From NCBI RefSeq assembly GCF_000586015.1, contig NZ_JENA01000001.1:1-33601 (forward strand): 33,601 bases of DNA. The letters run 5' to 3'. Both the position numbers and the translations under genes were made by a program. Below the pieces are notes generated by a model that saw nothing but the letters and a program-made list of their open reading frames with translations, did not search any database and was not told the DNA's origin. Shown here piece after piece: positions 1,263 to 14,332 of this stretch (position 1 is its first letter; every line of letters starts with the position of its first letter). The DNA is from Candidatus Synechococcus spongiarum SH4 (GTDB taxonomy: Bacteria > Cyanobacteriota > Cyanobacteriia > PCC-6307 > Cyanobiaceae).

Positions 1263-4200
1263 TTAGCCCAGGGAGGCTAGACGACCTTGGGCCAACTGGT
1301 ACTGCTGCTGAGCCTCGCTCAGATTAGAGCGCACCCTGCTCACCACGTCCTGGGGCGCCTGATCCAGAAACCTGGGATTGTGCAGGCGCTGGGAAAGGAC
1401 GGCGATCTCCTTCTCCGCCTTGCCGAGATCTTTCTGCAGGCGTCCCCGCAGGGCCTCCATGTCCACAAGACCACCGACCGGAAGCAGGATTTGCAGGTCA
1501 CCACTGACGGCGCTCAAACAGCGGGGCAGGTTGACAGCGGTGCTGCTGATGTTCACCGTCCCGGCCTTGGTGAGGCTGGCAATGTCCGCTTGCGTCTCCT
1601 GTAGCAGTTGGCACAATGCTTCATTATCGCTCACAAGAAGCACGGCCGCCGTCTGGGAGGGTTTCAAGCCCGCCACCGCCCGCAGGTTGCGCACCACGCG
1701 AATGGCGTCAATGAGGGCTGCAAACTGCTGTTCAAGCTGATCATCCAGGTGGCCCTGATCCAACCGGGGCCACTGCTGCAGGGCCAGGAAGGCATCAGGA
1801 TGGGCGCCGGTCAGCCGATGCCAGAGTTCCTCGCTGACGTGGGGCATGAAAGGGTGGACCAGGGCCAGCAGTTGCTCAATCACCAAAGCCAGAACCTGCT
1901 GGGCCGTGTGGCGATCCTCCGGACTGTTGCCGTTGAGGCGCCGCTTGAGCAGTTCAATGGTCCAGTCGCACACATCGTTCCAGGCAAACTCATAGAGGAT
2001 CCTGGCCGCTTCCCCCAAGCCGTAGTTGTCCAGCTTCTCCGCCATGGTCCGGCTGGTGCGCGCCAAGCGGGAAAGGATCCAGCGATCTGCGATCAAGAGT
2101 TTGTCGGGATCCGGCGGACCAAGGGATGCGGGGGTGGCCCCATCCAGGTTGAGCAGGGCAAAGCGGGTGGCATTCCACAACTTGTTGGCAAAGTTCCGCG
2201 ACACCTCGACAATGTTGGAGGCCTGGGCGACGGGATCGAAATCCAGACGAATGTCCTGCCCTGCTCCCGCCACACCCCGCACCAGGGCGAAGCGGAGGGC
2301 ATCCGCCCCGTAGCGTTCACAGAGCACCAGAGGATCGATCCCGTTGCCTGCGGATTTGCTCATCTTGCGGTTCTGCTCGTCCCGCACCAGGCCATGGATG
2401 TACACGTCGGCGAAGGGCATGGCGCCGGTGCAGGCCGAGGCCATCATCGTCATGCGGGCCACCCAGAAAAAGATGATGTCGAAACCGGTGAACAGGGTGC
2501 TATTGGGATACCAGCGCTGCAGATCGGCATTCTCTTCGTCCGGCCAACCCATGGTGGAGAAGGGCCACAGCGCGCTGGAAAACCAGGTATCGAGAACGTC
2601 TTCATCCTGTTGAATTGTTGCCTCCGGGCCATAACGGCGCTGCGCCTCTTCATGGGCTTCCACTTCGTTGCGGGCCACCACGTAGGGCGTATCACTGCGC
2701 AGTTGGTTGTCGGTTTCACTCACCACAAACCAGGCGGGAATGCGATGCCCCCACCACAACTGGCGGCTGATGCACCAGTCGCGGATATCCGTGAGCCAGT
2801 TCCGGTACACCTTGGCCCAACGCTGGGGAACAAAGCGGGGGTGTTCCTGGTCCAGGGCTTTCAGGCAAGCCTCCGCCAGAGGCTTGGTCCGGACAAACCA
2901 CTGGGTGGAGAGCAGGGGCTCCACCGGAACCTTGCCCCGGTCGGAATAGGGAACGCTGTGGCGGTAATCCTCTACTTTCACCAAAGCCTGTTCCGCGGCC
3001 AGAGCGGCCACAACCGCCTGTCTCGCCTCGAAGCGGTCCAGGCCGCGGAACGGGCCGGCAGCTTCAGCCATGCGCCCGTCCTTGTCCATGATCGTCACCA
3101 GGGGGAGGCCATGGCGGCGACCCATGGCAAAGTCGTTGGGGTCATGGGCCGGGGTCACCTTTACGCAGCCGGTGCCGAATTGGGGGTCCACGTGATCATC
3201 GGCAATGATGGGAATCTGGCGACCCACCAGGGGCAGGGTGAGGGTACGCCCCACCAATGGCCCATAGCGCTCGTCGCCGGGGTTCACCGCCACCGCCACG
3301 TCCCCCAGCATGGTCTCGGGGCGGGTGGTGGCCACCTCCAGGTGACCGGATCCGTCGGTGAGGGGATAGCGGAAATACCAGAGACGACCGTCCACTTCTT
3401 TCATCTCCACCTCCAGGTCACTCACGGCCGAGCCGGAGGCGGGGCACCAGTTCACCAGGTATTCCCCGCGATAAATCAGACTCTTCTCATGCAATCTCAG
3501 GAAGGATTCCTGCACAGCCCGACTGAGCCCAGGATCCAGGGTGAAGCGCTCCCGTTGCCAGTCCACGGAAAAACCCAGACGACGCAACTGGGTCACGATT
3601 GTTCCGCCACTCTCCTGTTTCCAGGCCCAGGCTCGCTTCAGGAATGCTTCACGGCCAAGCTGGTCTTTGCTGGTCCCTTCCTGGGTCAGTTGTTTCTCCA
3701 GAAGGGTCTGCACCGCAATGGAGGCGTGATCCGTACCCGGCAGACAGAGGGTGTTGTACCCCTGCAACCGCTTGAACCGCACCATGGTGTCAATCAGGGC
3801 CGCTTCAAAGGCATGGCCCATGTGCAAACTGCCCGTCACGTTGGGGGGTGGAATCACCACCCCGTAGGGCTGGCCGGGGGCCTGGGGATCCGGGTGGAAC
3901 GCACCACAGCGCTCCCAGGCCGACTGCCAGCGGGATTCCACGGGCTTGGGGTCGTATTGCCCCATTGCCGCCATGGCCGGGGGGGTGGCCATCGGGGGCT
4001 CGTCCACCCCAGGCCCGCCCTTTTCCATCACGGCGAGCATCACCTGGCCATCCCTGATCTCGATGGCCATCCGATCACCGGGCGCCAAACCCAGTCGTCT
4101 CGTATAGGCCTTGCCAATCAGCAGGTTTCCGTTGCCCTGAATCCTGGCTGCAAAACCCAGTTGACGGCCCCCTTGGGGGGTACCGCCAATCCGCACGCCT

Positions 4201-4358
4201 TTGGCCTGGAGCAGCGCCTCGTAAAAGGCGGTGAACTTGAGACGTTCACGGCCATCCTTTGTGGTGGTGACGTAGCCACAGGCGCGGATGACTTCTGCTT
4301 TGCTGGCGCCAGAAAGCTCATGGACCTTGTTGAGAAGCTCTGTGTGTTGGAGCATCAT
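1263..4358 (-). CDS. valS: Valyl-tRNA synthetase with an in-frame N-terminal cyAbrB domain
   Basis: Residues about 133-1031 form a complete class I valyl-tRNA synthetase, which charges tRNA-Val with valine. The HIGH-type motif is HMGH at 179-182 after PPPNVTG; KMSKS is at 665-669; the editing domain sits between ([25 protein letters not shown]). The C-terminus holds the anticodon-binding helices and the coiled-coil tRNA arm from about residue 960. What is unusual is residues 1-115: a full cyAbrB-type domain ([49 protein letters not shown]) closely matching the separate gene upstream. A Pro/Ala linker (116-131) joins them with no stop. A free ValS could start at internal Met codons 123 (3992), 129 (3974) or 132 (3965); the last, MGQYDP, resembles usual cyanobacterial ValS starts. 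Either a real fusion or a lost stop codon between neighbours. Confidence 0.95.
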
Positions 4359-4453: not shown

Positions 4454-4819
4454 TCACTCCTCCCCGCCGTCGTCCTCGGCGCCCAGGGGAACAAGACGGA
4501 TGTGTTTCCGGCCCAGCTTGATCTCAAACTCGTCACCGGGGTTCAGGCCAAGTTTCTTGGTGTAGGCCTTGCCAATGAGCAAATTGCCGTTGCCCTGAAC
4601 CTTGGCCATAAAGCTGAGTTTGCGCCCGCTCTTCGCACCACCGCCGCGCCCAATCTCCACACCCTTGGCATCAAGAACCGCCTCGTAGAAAGCCGTGAAA
4701 TTAAGGCGATCACGCCCATCCTTGGTGGTGGACACGTAGCCACAGGCGCGGACCACATCCGATTTGCTGGCGTCAGCAAGCTCGTGGACTTTTTTGAGAA
4801 GCTCTGTTTTTGTCAGCAT
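4454..4819 (-). CDS. cyAbrB-family DNA-binding transcription regulator
   Basis: A 121-residue protein of the cyanobacterial AbrB-like family, whose members bind DNA through a C-terminal AbrB fold and influence carbon and nitrogen gene expression. Recognisable parts are ELLKKVHELADASKSDVVRA at the start, CGYVSTTKDG, LNFTAFYEAVLDAKGVEIG, then [19 protein letters not shown] and PGDEFEIKLGRKHIRL, ending in an acidic tail (GAEDDGGEE). I chose ATG 4819 (MLTKTELL) over the TTG at 4831 because the family normally begins this way. The downstream neighbour, 95 bases away, starts with a paralogous domain fused to ValS, so this is one half of a tandem duplication. No strong Shine-Dalgarno sequence is visible. 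Confidence 0.9.
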   Translation of the reverse strand: MLTKTELLKKVHELADASKSDVVRACGYVSTTKDGRDRLNFTAFYEAVLDAKGVEIGRGGGAKSGRKLSFMAKVQGNGNLLIGKAYTKKLGLNPGDEFEIKLGRKHIRLVPLGAEDDGGEE

Positions 4820-4965
4820 CGTTTGGACCAAAAGAGGATTCCTGGACGCTAGTCAATCTAGCATGCTGCGGCGCCAGTGCGAAACACGAGAACAAGGAAT
4901 CTTTCCCGAGGCCCCACCGTCATGGCCCCCTCTACACAAGCGAGGCTGGCGGAAACAGATACAGA

Positions 4966-9706: not shown

Positions 9707-9856
9707 GCAAAACCGGAACCGGGAGTCCAACAGCCGTAACCCTGGATTCCCCAAGAGATGGTCTTTTCCCCCATGTCTCCGCGCCAGGGGATCGGCGGGG
9801 CTGTTCCTGTGGCGCCACAGTCTCCGTCCTGGTCAAGCCCCTGGTCAAGCCCACGT

Positions 9857-10147
9857 TCACCGTGACGGAAGGGTCCCTTGGCCCCCTGATCCGGAATTGA
9901 GATTCTTCCAGGAAGCAACCTGTTTGAGATCGTTGGCTTGCAGGTAGACCCTGGTGATGGTGAGTTCCGGGAAGCGCCGCTCAGCGTCCTTCAAGGTTCC
10001 TCCAACGCTTAACCCTTCCATGAGCAAGGTTCCCGGCCCCCCTAGAGGGTCGATGTAATCAATATGAAAGGAGCGGCGCGGGGCGCTTTTCAGGGGCTGG
10101 TGGGGGTACATGGCCATCGGCGGGACACATGGGAGCCAGGATCCCAT
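9857..10147 (-). CDS. Small hypothetical protein
   Basis: A 96-residue reading frame with a protein-like composition in its second half (FHIDYIDPLGGPGTLLMEGL, then DAERRFPELTITRVYLQAND, then LKQVASWKNLNSGS) and strong preference for G or C in third codon positions, as in neighbouring real genes. No signal peptide, membrane segment or known motif is visible. Internal ATGs at 10117 (MAMYPHQ) and 10111 are equally possible starts, since the first ten residues (MGSWLPCVPP) look less convincing. It converges with nadC, 150 bases away. I do not recognise it; it could also be a remnant of a longer gene. Confidence 0.45.
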   Translation of the reverse strand: MGSWLPCVPPMAMYPHQPLKSAPRRSFHIDYIDPLGGPGTLLMEGLSVGGTLKDAERRFPELTITRVYLQANDLKQVASWKNLNSGSGGQGTLPSR

Positions 10148-10233: not shown

Positions 10234-10678
10234 CTAAGGCTGACTCCAGGCGCACTCCGCCGTGGTAACGAGGGTGCGTGTGGTAAAATATTCGGTCTCA
10301 TAGGAGCATTGGCCAGTGATATCGGCGTATTTGCCTGTGCCGCCCACCAGGTTCATACGGCCTGTTCCCCCGCTGTTCGCCTCATCCAGGCCCTCCTGTT
10401 TCCTGATTGAGACGAAAACAGCCTATCTTCGCCATGGGCCTGCGTTTCGGTGAGTGCAAGGCCCCGTCAAGCTGATGCCATCAACGGACTCTTCCGAGAA
10501 CACCACACAGGATTGGAGAAAGTTCCGGCCATGTTGAATCTGTTTATAGGAGTAGGCAAAATGACCAACCACAGTAAATTGACCACTGGTTTGCGCGAGA
10601 ACGGGAGACAGGGGCGTTACCAGGCCAGCCATGATCAGCGATGATCAGCCAGGTGGTGGACTTCCGCAAGAAATCCAT
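10234..10678 (-). pseudogene. Decayed secreted small-protein gene, copy A (frameshifted)
   Basis: Pieces of one exported protein are readable across different minus-strand frames. A signal-peptide start MDFLRKSTTWLIIA begins at ATG 10678. The frame then shifts to TPLSPVLAQTSGQFTVVGHF, an AYSYKQIQHGRNFLQSCVVF segment and a stop at 10423. In another frame, 10234-10400 gives GLDEANSGGTGRMNLVGGTG, then KYADITGQCSYETEYF, and ends AECAWSQP before TAG at 10234-10236. The same succession of segments occurs in the neighbouring copy B, so this is a decayed paralogue and not random sequence. The GGTGKY..ITG motif recalls small beta-barrel secreted families (allene-oxide-cyclase-like or DUF3224-like), but that link is inference. 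At least two frame changes make an intact product impossible. Confidence 0.6.
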
Positions 10679-10787
10679 GGAAATGCCATAGAAAAACCAC
10701 TGCTTAGCGTAGTATGGCGTCACGGAAAGAAATCCAATGGGGGCGGGATGCGGAAACGACGGAAGTTGAGCCTTGCCCAGCGTTTGT

Positions 10788-11262
10788 CTAGGGCGTGCTC
10801 CAGTTGCAATCCGCCATCAGTACGCCAAGGCTTGGGATGAGGTATTGGACGTCATAGGTGCAGTGGCTTGTTATGCCCATGTCTTTCCCGTACCGCCAAC
10901 AAGCTCTAGGCGCCCCTCCCCCCTGTTTGGGATCCCATGGGGTCGCCTTGGTTTCTGTAGACCGACATCCAGGCTTAGTCTCCATCTCCACCATCCTCTT
11001 GAGATCGCTCTGAGAACACAACACAGGATCTTAACAAGCTTTGGCCATGGTGGAACAAGGGACCGCTGCTGCTTGTCACCGCTGCGCTGCCTTGCAAACC
11101 GCCCGCTGTAAAAACCGTGCCGTTTTGCTTGAGATTGGTGTAGTTGTAGGTGGAACTGAGCACCATGGAGAATTCCCCCACGCTTGGGGCCAGAACTGGG
11201 GACATTGGCGCCAGCAACACAGCCACCGTCAGCCAGAGTCTTGATTTGCAGAGTATCGCCAT
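10788..11262 (-). pseudogene. Decayed secreted small-protein gene, copy B (frameshifted)
   Basis: This copy opens with a clear signal peptide (SRLWLTVAVLLAPMSPVLAP) and continues VGEFSMVLSSTYNYTNLKQN up to HHGQSLLRSCVVFSE, stopping near 10975. The rest of the ancestral protein continues in other frames: MSVYRNQGDPMGSQTGG, then GEGRLELVGGTGK one frame away, then DMGITSHCTYDVQYL to MADCNW in a third, ending at 10788. Against copy A the matching blocks are SGQF/VGEF, QSCVVFSE/RSCVVFSE, NLVGGTGK/ELVGGTGK, ITGQCSYE/ITSHCTYD and AECAW/MADCNW, in the same order. Copy A also lacks about 20 residues before HGRNFLQ. The start lies 4 bases from the first ATG of the divergent LCP gene. Confidence 0.62.
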
Positions 11263-11265
11263 GGC

Positions 11266-12447
11266 ATGCGGGGGGCGGATTTGTCGGGGAAGCTTAGATC
11301 TGGAAAGCAGACGCTTGTGCTTGAGAGCCGCATATCGGACTCCCGTTGCGGCAAACTATGGTTTCCTGCTCCACCTCAACTGAAGCTGAAGGTCGATCTG
11401 AAGCGCGTCCTGCTCCGCTCCCCATGGCGTTGGGCGCTGCTGTCCCTACCCCTGCTTCTGCTGGTGGCGGTGTTCTGGGGAGGCCAACAGGTTCTCTCAC
11501 CGGAAGCGCGTCACCGCTTCCGCCGCCCTGGCGATGTGGTGTTGCTGGGCATCGATCCCATCGGCGCCAATGCCGACGTGGTGGTTGCGATTCGCCTGCA
11601 GCGCGGCCAAACCCGGATCACCCAGATTCCTCGCGACACCTTTACCCATAGCGAGGCCCTGGGCTCCTGGAAAATCGGCGAGCTGTACAGCCTGGCCGGA
11701 GCCGAGGCTGTTCAAGAAGAGGTGGCCCATCTTGTGGGCGCCGATTTCCCCCACCTTGTGGTGGTCCATGAAGGCGTTGTGGCCGCATTGGTGGACGCCC
11801 TCGGCGGCCTGACCGTCACGGTTCCAACGCGGATGGTCTATCGCGACCGGAGTCAGGGCCTGTTCATCGATCTGGAGCCAGGTCGGCAGAAGCTCAACGG
11901 CCAGCAGGTGGAACAGTTTATCCGCTGGCGTGGTCGGGACGGCGACATCGGTCGACTGGAACGGCGGCAGGAGGTGATCGGCGCCTTGAAGGACGTTTTT
12001 CAGAACCCGGCCACCTGGGCGCGCCTGCCCATGCTGATACAGGTCCTGGAAGAGGAGGTGAAGGCGGGGCAGTTCGTTACCAACCTGGATCTCCAAGACC
12101 TCCCCACCATTGCCAAGCTCTTTACCAGCGGTGGAGCCGTCGTCGATACCCTGCCGGGTCGTGAGGATTACTACAGGGGATTGAGCTACTGGTTTGCCGA
12201 GGAAGGAGATGCGCCCCCTGAACCTGTCGGTCTTTCACCACGGCAAGACTTCCTGCTCCAGCAGCAGGATACCCTGCCCTCCGAGCCTGCCCCGCCCCCC
12301 GAGAGGGGCGCCTTAACCCCTGAGTTTGTACCGCCCGCCCTGCAGGACAGGTTGCCGTTTCCTGCCCCGCCCCCGGTGGTTCCCCCACCCATAAAGCTAC
12401 CCGTAGAGCCCGTGGAGCAGAACAACGATCAAACGGGGGAACCATAA
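11266..12447 (+). CDS. LytR-CpsA-Psr (LCP) family cell-envelope protein
   Basis: Up to 393 residues. A single membrane helix (WALLSLPLLLLVAVFWGG) is followed by an LCP domain: DVVLLGIDPIGANADVVVAI, ITQIPRDTFTH with the conserved Arg-Asp, VVVHEGVVAALVDALGGLTV, LNGQQVEQFIRWR and GRLERRQEVI. LCP enzymes transfer polyprenyl-linked polymers onto peptidoglycan or other envelope acceptors; the cyanobacterial substrate is unknown. The last 90 residues are Pro-rich (PAPPPERG, PAPPPVVPPPIKLP) and probably extended. The first 40 residues before LKLKVDLKRV look unlike a leader, so translation may begin at a later non-ATG codon. It precedes a small membrane protein and three prepilins on the same strand, with a 21-base gap. 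Confidence 0.85.
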   Translation: MRGADLSGKLRSGKQTLVLESRISDSRCGKLWFPAPPQLKLKVDLKRVLLRSPWRWALLSLPLLLLVAVFWGGQQVLSPEARHRFRRPGDVVLLGIDPIGANADVVVAIRLQRGQTRITQIPRDTFTHSEALGSWKIGELYSLAGAEAVQEEVAHLVGADFPHLVVVHEGVVAALVDALGGLTVTVPTRMVYRDRSQGLFIDLEPGRQKLNGQQVEQFIRWRGRDGDIGRLERRQEVIGALKDVFQNPATWARLPMLIQVLEEEVKAGQFVTNLDLQDLPTIAKLFTSGGAVVDTLPGREDYYRGLSYWFAEEGDAPPEPVGLSPRQDFLLQQQDTLPSEPAPPPERGALTPEFVPPALQDRLPFPAPPPVVPPPIKLPVEPVEQNNDQTGEP

Positions 12448-12468: not shown

Positions 12469-12654
12469 GTGCTCCCTTTGGCTTTGATCACCGCCCTCGT
12501 GCTCTGGGGCACTGCGGCGGCGGTGCAGACCTGGGCCCAACTGCGCCACCAGCAGGTGGCGCGCCAGGAGACTGCCCAGCAGCGCGCCGATGCGAATCAC
12601 AACGAACGCATGAGCCACCTTCAGGCCAAGGCCCAGGCTGGCGAGGGTTCATGA
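12469..12654 (+). CDS. Small single-span membrane protein upstream of prepilin genes
   Basis: A 61-residue protein with GTG start, one N-terminal hydrophobic helix (PLALITALVLWGTAAAVQTW) and a charged Gln/Ala/Arg-rich tail likely to be helical (QLRHQQVARQETAQQRADAN). Its stop overlaps the ATG of the first prepilin (TTCATGATG, sharing four bases), so the two are probably translated together. No known motif is seen. The arrangement suggests a role with the minor pilins, for example in assembly, but this rests on position only. Confidence 0.55.
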   Translation: MLPLALITALVLWGTAAAVQTWAQLRHQQVARQETAQQRADANHNERMSHLQAKAQAGEGS

Positions 12655-13277
12655 TGCCCATCCTGAAGAGACAGCCTTTGCGGCTCCACGGCTCCAGGGA
12701 CAGCGCCGGCTTCACCCTGGTGGAGGTGGTGGTGAGCAGCAGCATTCTTGCCTTTGCCCTGGCGGGCAGCTTCCGGGGCTGGAGCCAGGGGCAGGCCCTG
12801 GTGCAACAGGCCAACCAACGACAGGTGCTCCTGGATGCCGTTGAGCAGGACCTGCAACGGCAACAGGGCTTCGTGATTCAGCAGTTGAAGACCAAGGCGC
12901 CCTGGGCGTGTGAAATGCCCCTGGCTGAGCTGCGGGAGAAACTCAAGGCCCTCCCCCATGACCTGCCGGAAACCGTGGAGCGCCAGTGGTTCATGGACGA
13001 TGCATCGCCCGTGCTGGCCATTCGCTATTCCTCCCCCAAATTGCAAGCGCCGCGGGAACGCTTGCTGGCATTCGAGAGAAGAGGTTCCATTTGTGATGAA
13101 GCCGTTTGTGACGACAAAGCCAAAGCCATGGTCACCGGGTCAGGTTCGGGAGACCAGGATCCGGCAGGAGGCGGGATTCAGCCTGGTGGAACTGCTGATC
13201 ACTGCTGTTCTGCTGAGCCTGCTGGCGGGCCTTGTGCTGCCCAGGAGTCAGAACTGGCTGGCGCGGCAACGCCGTGA
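12651..13277 (+). CDS. Type IV prepilin-like protein (minor pilin), possible frameshift near 3' end
   Basis: A class III signal peptide is plain: a short basic leader, then G|FTLVEVVVSSSILAFALAGS, the prepilin peptidase site and hydrophobic assembly helix of type IV pilins and pseudopilins. The soluble part through LAFERR (about residue 143) looks like a normal head domain. After that the frame continues 60 residues with Gly/Ala/Cys-rich sequence overlapping the next pilin gene by 182 bases, which looks like out-of-frame translation. One frame away, TGATGA at 13094-13099 would stop this gene exactly on the next ATG, the usual operon junction. The natural end is thus probably about 13096, with a one-base indel just before it. 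ATG 12651 follows the upstream small gene with a four-base overlap. Confidence 0.75.
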   Translation: MMPILKRQPLRLHGSRDSAGFTLVEVVVSSSILAFALAGSFRGWSQGQALVQQANQRQVLLDAVEQDLQRQQGFVIQQLKTKAPWACEMPLAELREKLKALPHDLPETVERQWFMDDASPVLAIRYSSPKLQAPRERLLAFERRGSICDEAVCDDKAKAMVTGSGSGDQDPAGGGIQPGGTADHCCSAEPAGGPCAAQESELAGAATP

Positions 13278-13650
13278 CGGGGCTGTGCAGTCCCTGTTCC
13301 ATGGTCTGGAGGTGTCCCGGTCGGGGGCGGCGGCCAAGGGCAAAGCCTGTGCCATGGCCCTGACCCCGTCCGGCTGGGGGGAGCCCCTTGACAGCGCTTC
13401 TCCCACCTGCTCCGGCATCCGTGACCTCACCGCCACCGCGCCGGGGCTGCGCATCACCACCAACATGACCCGGGACGTGGAGATTGGCCCCACGGGACTG
13501 TTCAGCGGCGCAGGGGGCACCGTGGTGGTGGGTCACAGGGACCTGACCATGGAGCGCTGCTTCGTGATTGCCCTGCCCCTGGGCACCGTCCGCACAGGGG
13601 TCTACGACAGCGACAAGAACAAGTGCGTCAAACATGAAAAGGACAACTAG
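13096..13650 (+). CDS. Type IV prepilin-like protein (minor pilin)
   Basis: A 184-residue prepilin with leader MKPFVTTKPKPWSPGQVRET, a cleavage site at G|FSLVELLITAVLLSLLAG, and a head domain typical of pseudopilins: NWLARQRRDGAVQSLFHGLE, then SRSGAAAKGKACAMALTPSG. That head pattern resembles GspH/FimT-type minor pilins, which also carry SGW-like motifs and a paired-cysteine C-terminus (here ERCFVIALPLGTVRTG). The frame is open upstream to 12910, but that part is a shadow of the previous pilin, so ATG 13096 was chosen. It ends 17 bases after the next prepilin starts. Likely partners are the type IV pilus or DNA-uptake machinery, encoded elsewhere. Confidence 0.82.
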   Translation: MKPFVTTKPKPWSPGQVRETRIRQEAGFSLVELLITAVLLSLLAGLVLPRSQNWLARQRRDGAVQSLFHGLEVSRSGAAAKGKACAMALTPSGWGEPLDSASPTCSGIRDLTATAPGLRITTNMTRDVEIGPTGLFSGAGGTVVVGHRDLTMERCFVIALPLGTVRTGVYDSDKNKCVKHEKDN

Positions 13651-14332
13651 GCCCTGGGTATTGCCACCTCATTTCAGACAACGGGGCGCCCATCAAGGTG
13701 ACGCTGGCGGCTTCACCTTGATGGAGTTGCTCATCGTGTTGCTGCTGGCCTCGGGATTGGCCCTGGTGTGCTTCAACGCGCTGCTGGCGGACGGGCAGGT
13801 GGTGGGGCGCATGGCCAAGGGTTGGCGGCAGCGACAAGAGCGGGAGCGGGCGTTGGATCTGATCCGTCACGACCTGATCCAGGGAGACGACGTGTTGCTG
13901 AATCCAGCCCAGGCCCAACACCGCTGCTCCATGAACAAGCGCCAGCCGGTGTTGGTGATTGCCACCAAAAAAGCCGGGCCGATCACCTATGCCATCGGTC
14001 CTGCCCCCTCCAGCATTTGGGCCAGCCGCGTGCTGCTGCGTTGTGGGCCGGCCTTCACCAAAGCCGGTGTGTGGAGCCAGAAGGCTTTCTTAAACCGGGT
14101 GCTCATTGACAGGCTCCAACCTCCGGAAACACCATGGCAGCAGTGCCCTACAGCCAGGGGTGTGGAGGTGGGCAACTCCTTCCCCCTCCCCCTGTCCGTC
14201 TGCATGGAGCCCGACACCGGCCTGGTGACGGTTCGCCTCAGCCAGGGCCGGGAGGATTCCACCGCCAGCGCCGTGGTGGGCCTCCACAACCTCGTGGGGG
14301 CAGATTCCCAGGAGGACAAGACAAACAACTGA
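13634..14332 (+). CDS. Type IV prepilin-like protein (minor pilin, PilW/GspJ-like)
   Basis: Starting at ATG 13634 (MKRTTRPWVLPPHFRQ), it has a 28-residue leader ending in G|FTLMELLIVLLLASGLALV, with the expected Glu at +5 of the mature pilin. The long head domain (about 200 residues; RALDLIRHDLIQGDDVLLNP early on) resembles larger minor pilins of the PilW/GspJ sort. Cysteines at HRCSMNK, LLRCGPA, WQQCPTA and SVCMEP could form disulphides. The frame runs upstream to 13568, but that overlaps the preceding pilin and is not needed. The stop lies 60 bases from the stop of the convergent long-leader pilin. Confidence 0.8.
   Translation: MKRTTRPWVLPPHFRQRGAHQGDAGGFTLMELLIVLLLASGLALVCFNALLADGQVVGRMAKGWRQRQERERALDLIRHDLIQGDDVLLNPAQAQHRCSMNKRQPVLVIATKKAGPITYAIGPAPSSIWASRVLLRCGPAFTKAGVWSQKAFLNRVLIDRLQPPETPWQQCPTARGVEVGNSFPLPLSVCMEPDTGLVTVRLSQGREDSTASAVVGLHNLVGADSQEDKTNN

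What the first reader, a model, noticed from the sequence alone, without database searches (positions are those of the whole stretch)
10234..11262. Two decayed paralogues of a secreted protein with GGTGK...ITG motif
Both copies show the same ordered blocks (signal peptide, VGEF/SGQF, SCVVFSE, LVGGTGK, ITGQCSYE/ITSHCTYD, AECAW/MADCNW) scattered over several frames, with independent frameshifts. This is a lost family of exported proteins with conserved cysteines. Repeated decay suggests loss of a surface or secreted trait, as expected in a symbiont or reduced lifestyle.
Basis: partly seen in the sequence, partly recalled or inferred. Interest (0 to 1): 0.6.

Follow-up and report, generated by a model that had tools for sequence, protein, structure and literature searches.

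The report
Two broken dirigent-like barrel genes
In a sponge-dwelling cyanobacterium, two neighbouring genes for small exported, probably disulphide-bonded barrel proteins are broken; intact copies in sister species and in some proteobacteria, and their predicted shape, link them to plant dirigent and allene-oxide-cyclase barrels, whereas dirigent proteins had been reported absent from cyanobacteria.

Summary
On the minus strand, 11262-10788 (A) and 10678-10234 (B) are two tandem, paralogous pseudogenes. Relatives in eight congeners (Candidatus Synechococcus spongiarum group), most of them intact, show the lesions: A has a 39-bp deletion, a nonsense codon and two 1-bp deletions; B has a 10-bp tandem duplication, a 78-bp deletion and 2-bp and 1-bp deletions. 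The copies share none, and broken copies in sister genomes carry different lesions, so decay is repeated and not a sequencing error. No other copy was found in this 89%-complete assembly.

The intact protein (about 171 aa) has a signal peptide, four invariant cysteines and a GGTGKY motif. AlphaFold2 predicts an eight-stranded barrel; the leading PDB matches are dirigent proteins and allene-oxide-cyclase-type barrels. The beta3/beta4 cysteine pair and the motif are those published for bacterial dirigent-like proteins; Pfam Dirigent itself scores below cut-off. Of 59 Cyanobiaceae genera sampled only this genus has it; relatives occur sporadically in proteobacteria.

Best reading: a Sec-exported small-molecule-binding or cyclising barrel, dispensable and lost lineage by lineage in sponge symbionts. 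Ligand and exact function are inferred, not shown.

The parts
10788..11262 (-). Pseudogene A (A-type paralogue)
   Evidence: intact A in G004 (L016:3296-3823) and G008 (L020:7361-7873)
11188..11262 (-). Signal-peptide coding part of A (MAILCKSRLWLTVAVLLAPMSPVLA), still open
   Evidence: by inspection, no signal-peptide predictor run
10975..10977 (-). A: nonsense codon TAA where intact genes have Gln (CAA/CAG)
10992..10997 (-). A: site of 39-bp in-frame deletion (removes the region of the second conserved Cys, beta4)
10883..10913 (-). A: two 1-bp deletions (about 10912 and 10883) bracketing LVGGTGK (10903-10883)
10791..10874 (-). A: C-terminal block ITSHCTYD...MADCNWSTP
10234..10678 (-). Pseudogene B (B-type paralogue)
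   Evidence: 83% identical to the intact G005 copy over the last 52 aa
10640..10649 (-). B: 10-bp tandem duplication in the signal-peptide region (frameshift)
10530..10531 (-). B: junction of 78-bp in-frame deletion (81 bp against G005), removing most of strand beta2
10418..10457 (-). B: 2-bp deletion (10457/10456) and 1-bp deletion (10419/10418) with TAG at 10425-10423 between them
10237..10422 (-). B: C-terminal block, SGGTGRMNLVGGTGKYADITGQCSYE...AECAWSQP
11266..12447 (+). Flanking LytR-CpsA-Psr gene, intact; it flanks the family in G003, G004 and G005 too (synteny anchor)
9857..10147 (-). Flanking small conserved gene of unknown function, 91% identical to G004

Best explanation
A and B are the remains of a tandem pair of Sec-exported, about 171-residue proteins that fold as a dirigent / allene-oxide-cyclase-type eight-stranded beta-barrel, pinned by two beta-hairpin disulphides (Cys80-Cys97 on beta3/beta4; Cys148-Cys166 on beta7/beta8). 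Shown: homology to intact genes, paralogy, lesions, repeated loss, purifying selection on intact copies. Predicted: fold and export. Inferred: like its structural relatives, the mature protein works outside the cytoplasm by binding a small, probably hydrophobic or aromatic molecule in the barrel and steering, cyclising or sequestering it; in sponge symbionts this became dispensable and was lost lineage by lineage.
For: Intact orthologues and tandem arrays in congeners; conserved location beside the LCP gene; eight lesions, different from those of the broken B copy in G009 and the broken A copy in G005, on a ValS tree that puts G005 next to (G000, G009) with full support; dN/dS 0.21-0.32 among intact orthologues; four Cys and GGTGKY invariant in the 14 cyanobacterial and proteobacterial members aligned; two AlphaFold2 models, pLDDT 84, all-beta; leading Foldseek PDB hits are dirigent proteins and AOC-type barrels (PsPTS2, GePTS1, PloI4, DUF3224, PodA, AOC2), most at probability 0.98-1.00; weak Pfam Dirigent match E=0.003; published DIRL hallmarks, beta3/beta4 Cys pair and GGTG-Y/F motif (PMC9344732).
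Against: No Pfam family passes its cut-off. The profile-profile match to PF03018/PF18678-positive gammaproteobacterial proteins covers only the GGTG motif (22 columns, E=2e-6). TM-scores are modest (about 0.4-0.55). No ligand, partner gene, operon or expression evidence. Disulphides are inferred from strand register, not seen in coordinates. The A-type gene is broken or missing in all of G005, G000 and G009, so a shared first loss (for example of its promoter) is not excluded.
Confidence: 0.7

Rival explanations
1. Sequencing or assembly error: the genes are really intact and the frameshifts are artefacts of a draft assembly.
For: The assembly is fragmented (273 contigs, 89% complete).
Against: Lesions include 39-bp and 78-bp deletions and a 10-bp duplication, eight within 1 kb, while nadC, the LCP gene and valS in the same contig are open over their full lengths. 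Sister genome G009 and G005 also carry broken copies, with other lesions.
Confidence: 0.03
2. Two working short proteins, or genes read by programmed frameshifting, rather than dead genes.
For: Copy A keeps its start and signal peptide and could give a 95-aa secreted fragment.
Against: Each copy would need several shifts plus stop read-through; deletions remove a conserved Cys (A) or a barrel strand (B); intact relatives are read in one frame.
Confidence: 0.04
3. The family is an outer-membrane or adhesin-like surface protein (8-stranded OmpX/Ail type, or fimbrial), so the lost trait is attachment or surface identity.
For: Exported beta-barrel; OmpX/Ail/OmpA appear low in the Foldseek lists; one member has a weak NCBIfam fimbrial-like hit, E=0.002.
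Against: OmpX/Ail/OmpA hits have probability 0.14-0.33 and TM about 0.17, against 1.00 and about 0.5 for dirigent/AOC barrels; the fimbrial hit is in one of nine members only.
Confidence: 0.08
4. An AOC-type barrel with a purely structural or scavenging (lipocalin-like carrier) role rather than catalytic steering.
For: The fold is shared by enzymes and by proteins of unknown function (DUF3224, DUF3237); few invariant polar residues besides D108, R116, Y150 and Y154.
Against: Nothing decisive; active-site mapping was not possible without coordinates.
Confidence: 0.3

Closest known systems
Bacterial dirigent-like proteins (DIRLs; PF03018), PMC9344732
   Same: Export signal; eight-stranded barrel; conserved Cys in consecutive strands beta3 and beta4; GGTG-Y/F...G motif at the end of beta6
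   Different: Below the PF03018 cut-off; an invariant second Cys pair on beta7/beta8 (a roughly comparable extra pair is reported there for one DIRL only); found in a cyanobacterial sponge-symbiont genus, whereas that paper's text does not mention cyanobacteria
Plant dirigent proteins (AtDIR6, DRR206, PsPTS1/2, GePTS1)
   Same: Predicted fold, signal peptide, GGTG motif
   Different: About 10-16% sequence identity in the Foldseek alignments; the plant beta1-beta8 disulphide is not among the cysteines here; substrate unknown. [quoted passage not shown]
AOC-type barrels: allene oxide cyclase, AOC_like PF18678, PloI4/AbyU/Cyc15 cyclases, DUF3224, PodA
   Same: Predicted barrel fold by Foldseek
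   Different: No significant sequence match; no biosynthetic cluster seen beside the genes
Unnamed exported proteobacterial proteins with GGTGKYxGITG (e.g. L062, L067, L071, L072)
   Same: Signal peptide by inspection, two central Cys, GGTGKY motif; profile match probability 98.8%, E=1e-16 over 131 columns
   Different: Lack the invariant C148/C166 pair; the five scanned have no Pfam family either

Membership tests
Pseudogene pair of the genus-specific family | Homology to intact single-frame genes, with disabling lesions | tested here: met
Dirigent-like (PF03018) | Pfam Dirigent score over 29.1 bits | tested here: not met
   best 17.8 bits, E=0.003; 0 of 13 genomes over cut-off
Dirigent-like (PF03018) | Eight-stranded AOC/dirigent barrel | tested here: met
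   predicted only:
Bacterial DIRL | Cys on both beta3 and beta4 | tested here: met
   C80 and C97 invariant, in strands 75-87 and 90-101; criterion from PMC9344732
Bacterial DIRL | GGTG-Y/F-...-G motif at the end of beta6 | tested here: met
   GGTGKY 136-141 at the end of strand 128-137
Bacterial DIRL | N-terminal export signal | tested here: inconclusive
   typical n/h/c regions and ALA cleavage site by inspection; low-pLDDT N-terminus; no signal-peptide predictor available
Bacterial DIRL | Full-length profile homology to PF03018-positive bacterial proteins | tested here: inconclusive
   hhalign 89% but over 22 columns only
Dirigent / AOC enzymes | Radical coupling or cyclase activity | not testable with these tools
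   needs biochemistry

The most novel reading that the evidence does not exclude
A previously undescribed exported dirigent-type barrel family serves the sponge holobiont: it was exchanged between cyanobacterial and proteobacterial symbionts, acts on a small molecule of the host or community, and is lost symbiont by symbiont as hosts differ.
Probability: 0.18. Interest if true: 0.65.

Novelty: new member of a known kind. Interest (0 to 1): 0.36.

Why it matters
It gives a structural identity to an unnamed, multi-copy exported protein family that no Pfam model recognises over its cut-off, puts a dirigent/AOC-type barrel in cyanobacteria where dirigent proteins were stated to be absent (PMC7450108), and marks a trait lost repeatedly in sponge symbionts, so that host species can be compared with and without it.

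Tried and rejected
Search for another copy in the same genome: none. Sequence match to solved structures: nothing credible. Viral contigs: no relative. Plasmids: no relative. Outer-membrane barrel and fimbrial readings: rejected on Foldseek probabilities and a single weak hit. Family tree for direction of transfer: branches too long and supports too low. Papers on this family in sponge symbionts: none found under the terms used; the two main Ca. S. spongiarum genome papers cited in PMC5408123 are not held. No frame-mended protein was made; the broken copies were searched as separate pieces.

Full report
WHERE IT IS. The window is contig C1 of a 1.66-Mb, 273-contig, 89%-complete genome. Congeners whose loci carry public names include Candidatus Synechococcus spongiarum SP3 and LMB bulk15M, the latter from the sponge Aplysina aerophoba (PMC5408123), so this is a sponge-symbiont cyanobacterial genus.

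Minus-strand translation shows every block quoted, in order, over three frames. A profile built only from intact proteins of other genomes finds five fragments in the window's six-frame translation, all inside 11355-10237, with E from 1e-37 to 6e-4; twenty shuffled sets gave none.

INTACT RELATIVES. Searching the C-terminal piece of copy B, unaltered, found relatives in 8 of 9 congeners and in none of the 30 genomes outside the genus; a profile search gave the same picture in 300 family genomes (1 of 59 genera). Tandem arrays recur: A+B in G004, A+B+B in G008. Intact: G001, G003, G004 (two), G005 (B), G006, G008 (three). Broken: A in G005, A in G007 (a TGA in the signal peptide), B in G009; one G007 copy is cut by a contig end. 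G002 (72% complete) has none. The family flanks the LytR-CpsA-Psr gene in G003, G004 and G005 as in the window.

LESIONS AND HISTORY. A: 39-bp in-frame deletion, Gln-to-stop, two 1-bp deletions. B: 10-bp tandem duplication in the signal peptide, 78-bp in-frame deletion, 2-bp and 1-bp deletions with a stop between. A valyl-tRNA synthetase tree groups (G005,(G000,G009)) with full support. B is intact in G005 and broken by quite different lesions in G000 and G009, so it was most likely lost twice. A is broken by different lesions in G000 and G005 (one deletion in G000 falls inside a larger one in G005, with other ends) and was not found in G009; independent loss is the simplest reading, but an earlier shared loss by a change outside the coding region cannot be excluded. 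Intact orthologues have dN/dS 0.21-0.32, so they are, or were until recently, under purifying selection. Differences between window B and G005 B still favour third codon positions (15:13:34), which suggests recent decay.

WHAT THE PROTEIN IS. About 171 residues: a signal peptide ending LSPALA|Q by inspection, four invariant Cys (80, 97, 148, 166), invariant D108 and R116, and GGTGKY. With a wider set of 18 members, one or two distant ones lack some of the first pair. AlphaFold2 on two different first sequences gave all-beta models with pLDDT 84. The leading PDB matches of both models are plant dirigent proteins (PsPTS2, GePTS1, PsPTS1, DRR206, JAC1 dirigent domain) and AOC-type cyclases or relatives (PloI4, Cyc15, PyrI4, AOC2, DUF3224, DUF3237, PodA), mostly at probability 1.00, E about 1e-3 to 1e-2 and TM about 0.5. 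Pfam Dirigent gives E=0.003, below its cut-off. A survey of bacterial dirigent-like proteins reports as hallmarks a Cys in each of beta3 and beta4 in 42 of 49 proteins and a GGTG-Y/F motif after beta6 (PMC9344732). Here C80 and C97 lie in strands 75-87 and 90-101 in hairpin register, and the motif ends strand six. C148 and C166 lie in the last hairpin, a second pair; the survey mentions a roughly comparable extra pair in one protein only. Fold and membership are thus well supported but predicted; enzymatic function is not shown.

DISTRIBUTION. Not found in 291 other cyanobacterial genomes. Found intact, in 2-4 copies, in two uncultured alphaproteobacterial genomes and a proteobacterial MAG (MED768), and broken over several frames in a gammaproteobacterial MAG named SB0662_bin_52, the same sample prefix as G004's SB0662_bin_14. 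In broader class samples it is rare (8 of 289 and 7 of 274, mostly weaker relatives). This patchiness suggests horizontal transfer; the tree could not tell the direction. A wider set of exported GGTGKYxGITG proteins in proteobacteria is clearly related by profile (98.8%, E=1e-16) and also lacks a Pfam family.

MECHANISM. Shown: gene family, lesions, repeated loss, selection on intact copies. Predicted: export and barrel. Inferred: binding and steering, cyclising or sequestering a small molecule outside the cytoplasm. The loss fits a trait whose use depends on host or community; that dependence itself was not tested.

VERDICT. A correct and useful observation: ordinary gene decay of an uncommon protein. 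The value is in the identity of the family rather than in the decay.

Noticed in passing
window 1263-4358 (-): valS is fused in frame behind a cyAbrB-type (PF14250) domain (residues 44-105; synthetase from about 133-144). All 10 genomes of the genus match over the full length in one frame; in nearly all other Cyanobiaceae genera sampled the AbrB and ValS parts match at separate places (G046 matches from residue 63). A separate cyAbrB-like gene lies at 4454-4831 (-).
   Followed up: partly
window 9857-10147 (-): Small conserved gene next to copy B; its stop codon reads TGG here and in sister G009 (TGA in G005), adding a C-terminal tail. No Pfam family.
   Followed up: partly
window 9707-9856: A further exported protein gene that follows this small gene in G004, G005 and G007 (L016:4749-5423, 'LNNPLTVVFGRTNFNTDFTV') is missing at this place in the window; elsewhere in the genome not checked.
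   Followed up: partly
L026:7635-8129: A gammaproteobacterial MAG (SB0662_bin_52) carries a decayed member of the same family spread over three frames.
   Followed up: partly
L022:7938-8989: In an uncultured alphaproteobacterium two intact tandem copies lie beside a phoB-phoU-pstB-pstA-pstC-like cluster on the opposite strand, named from reading the ORFs only.
   Followed up: no
window 12651-14332 (+): Pseudopilin-like ORFs with GFTLVE-type N-termini follow the LCP gene.
   Followed up: no
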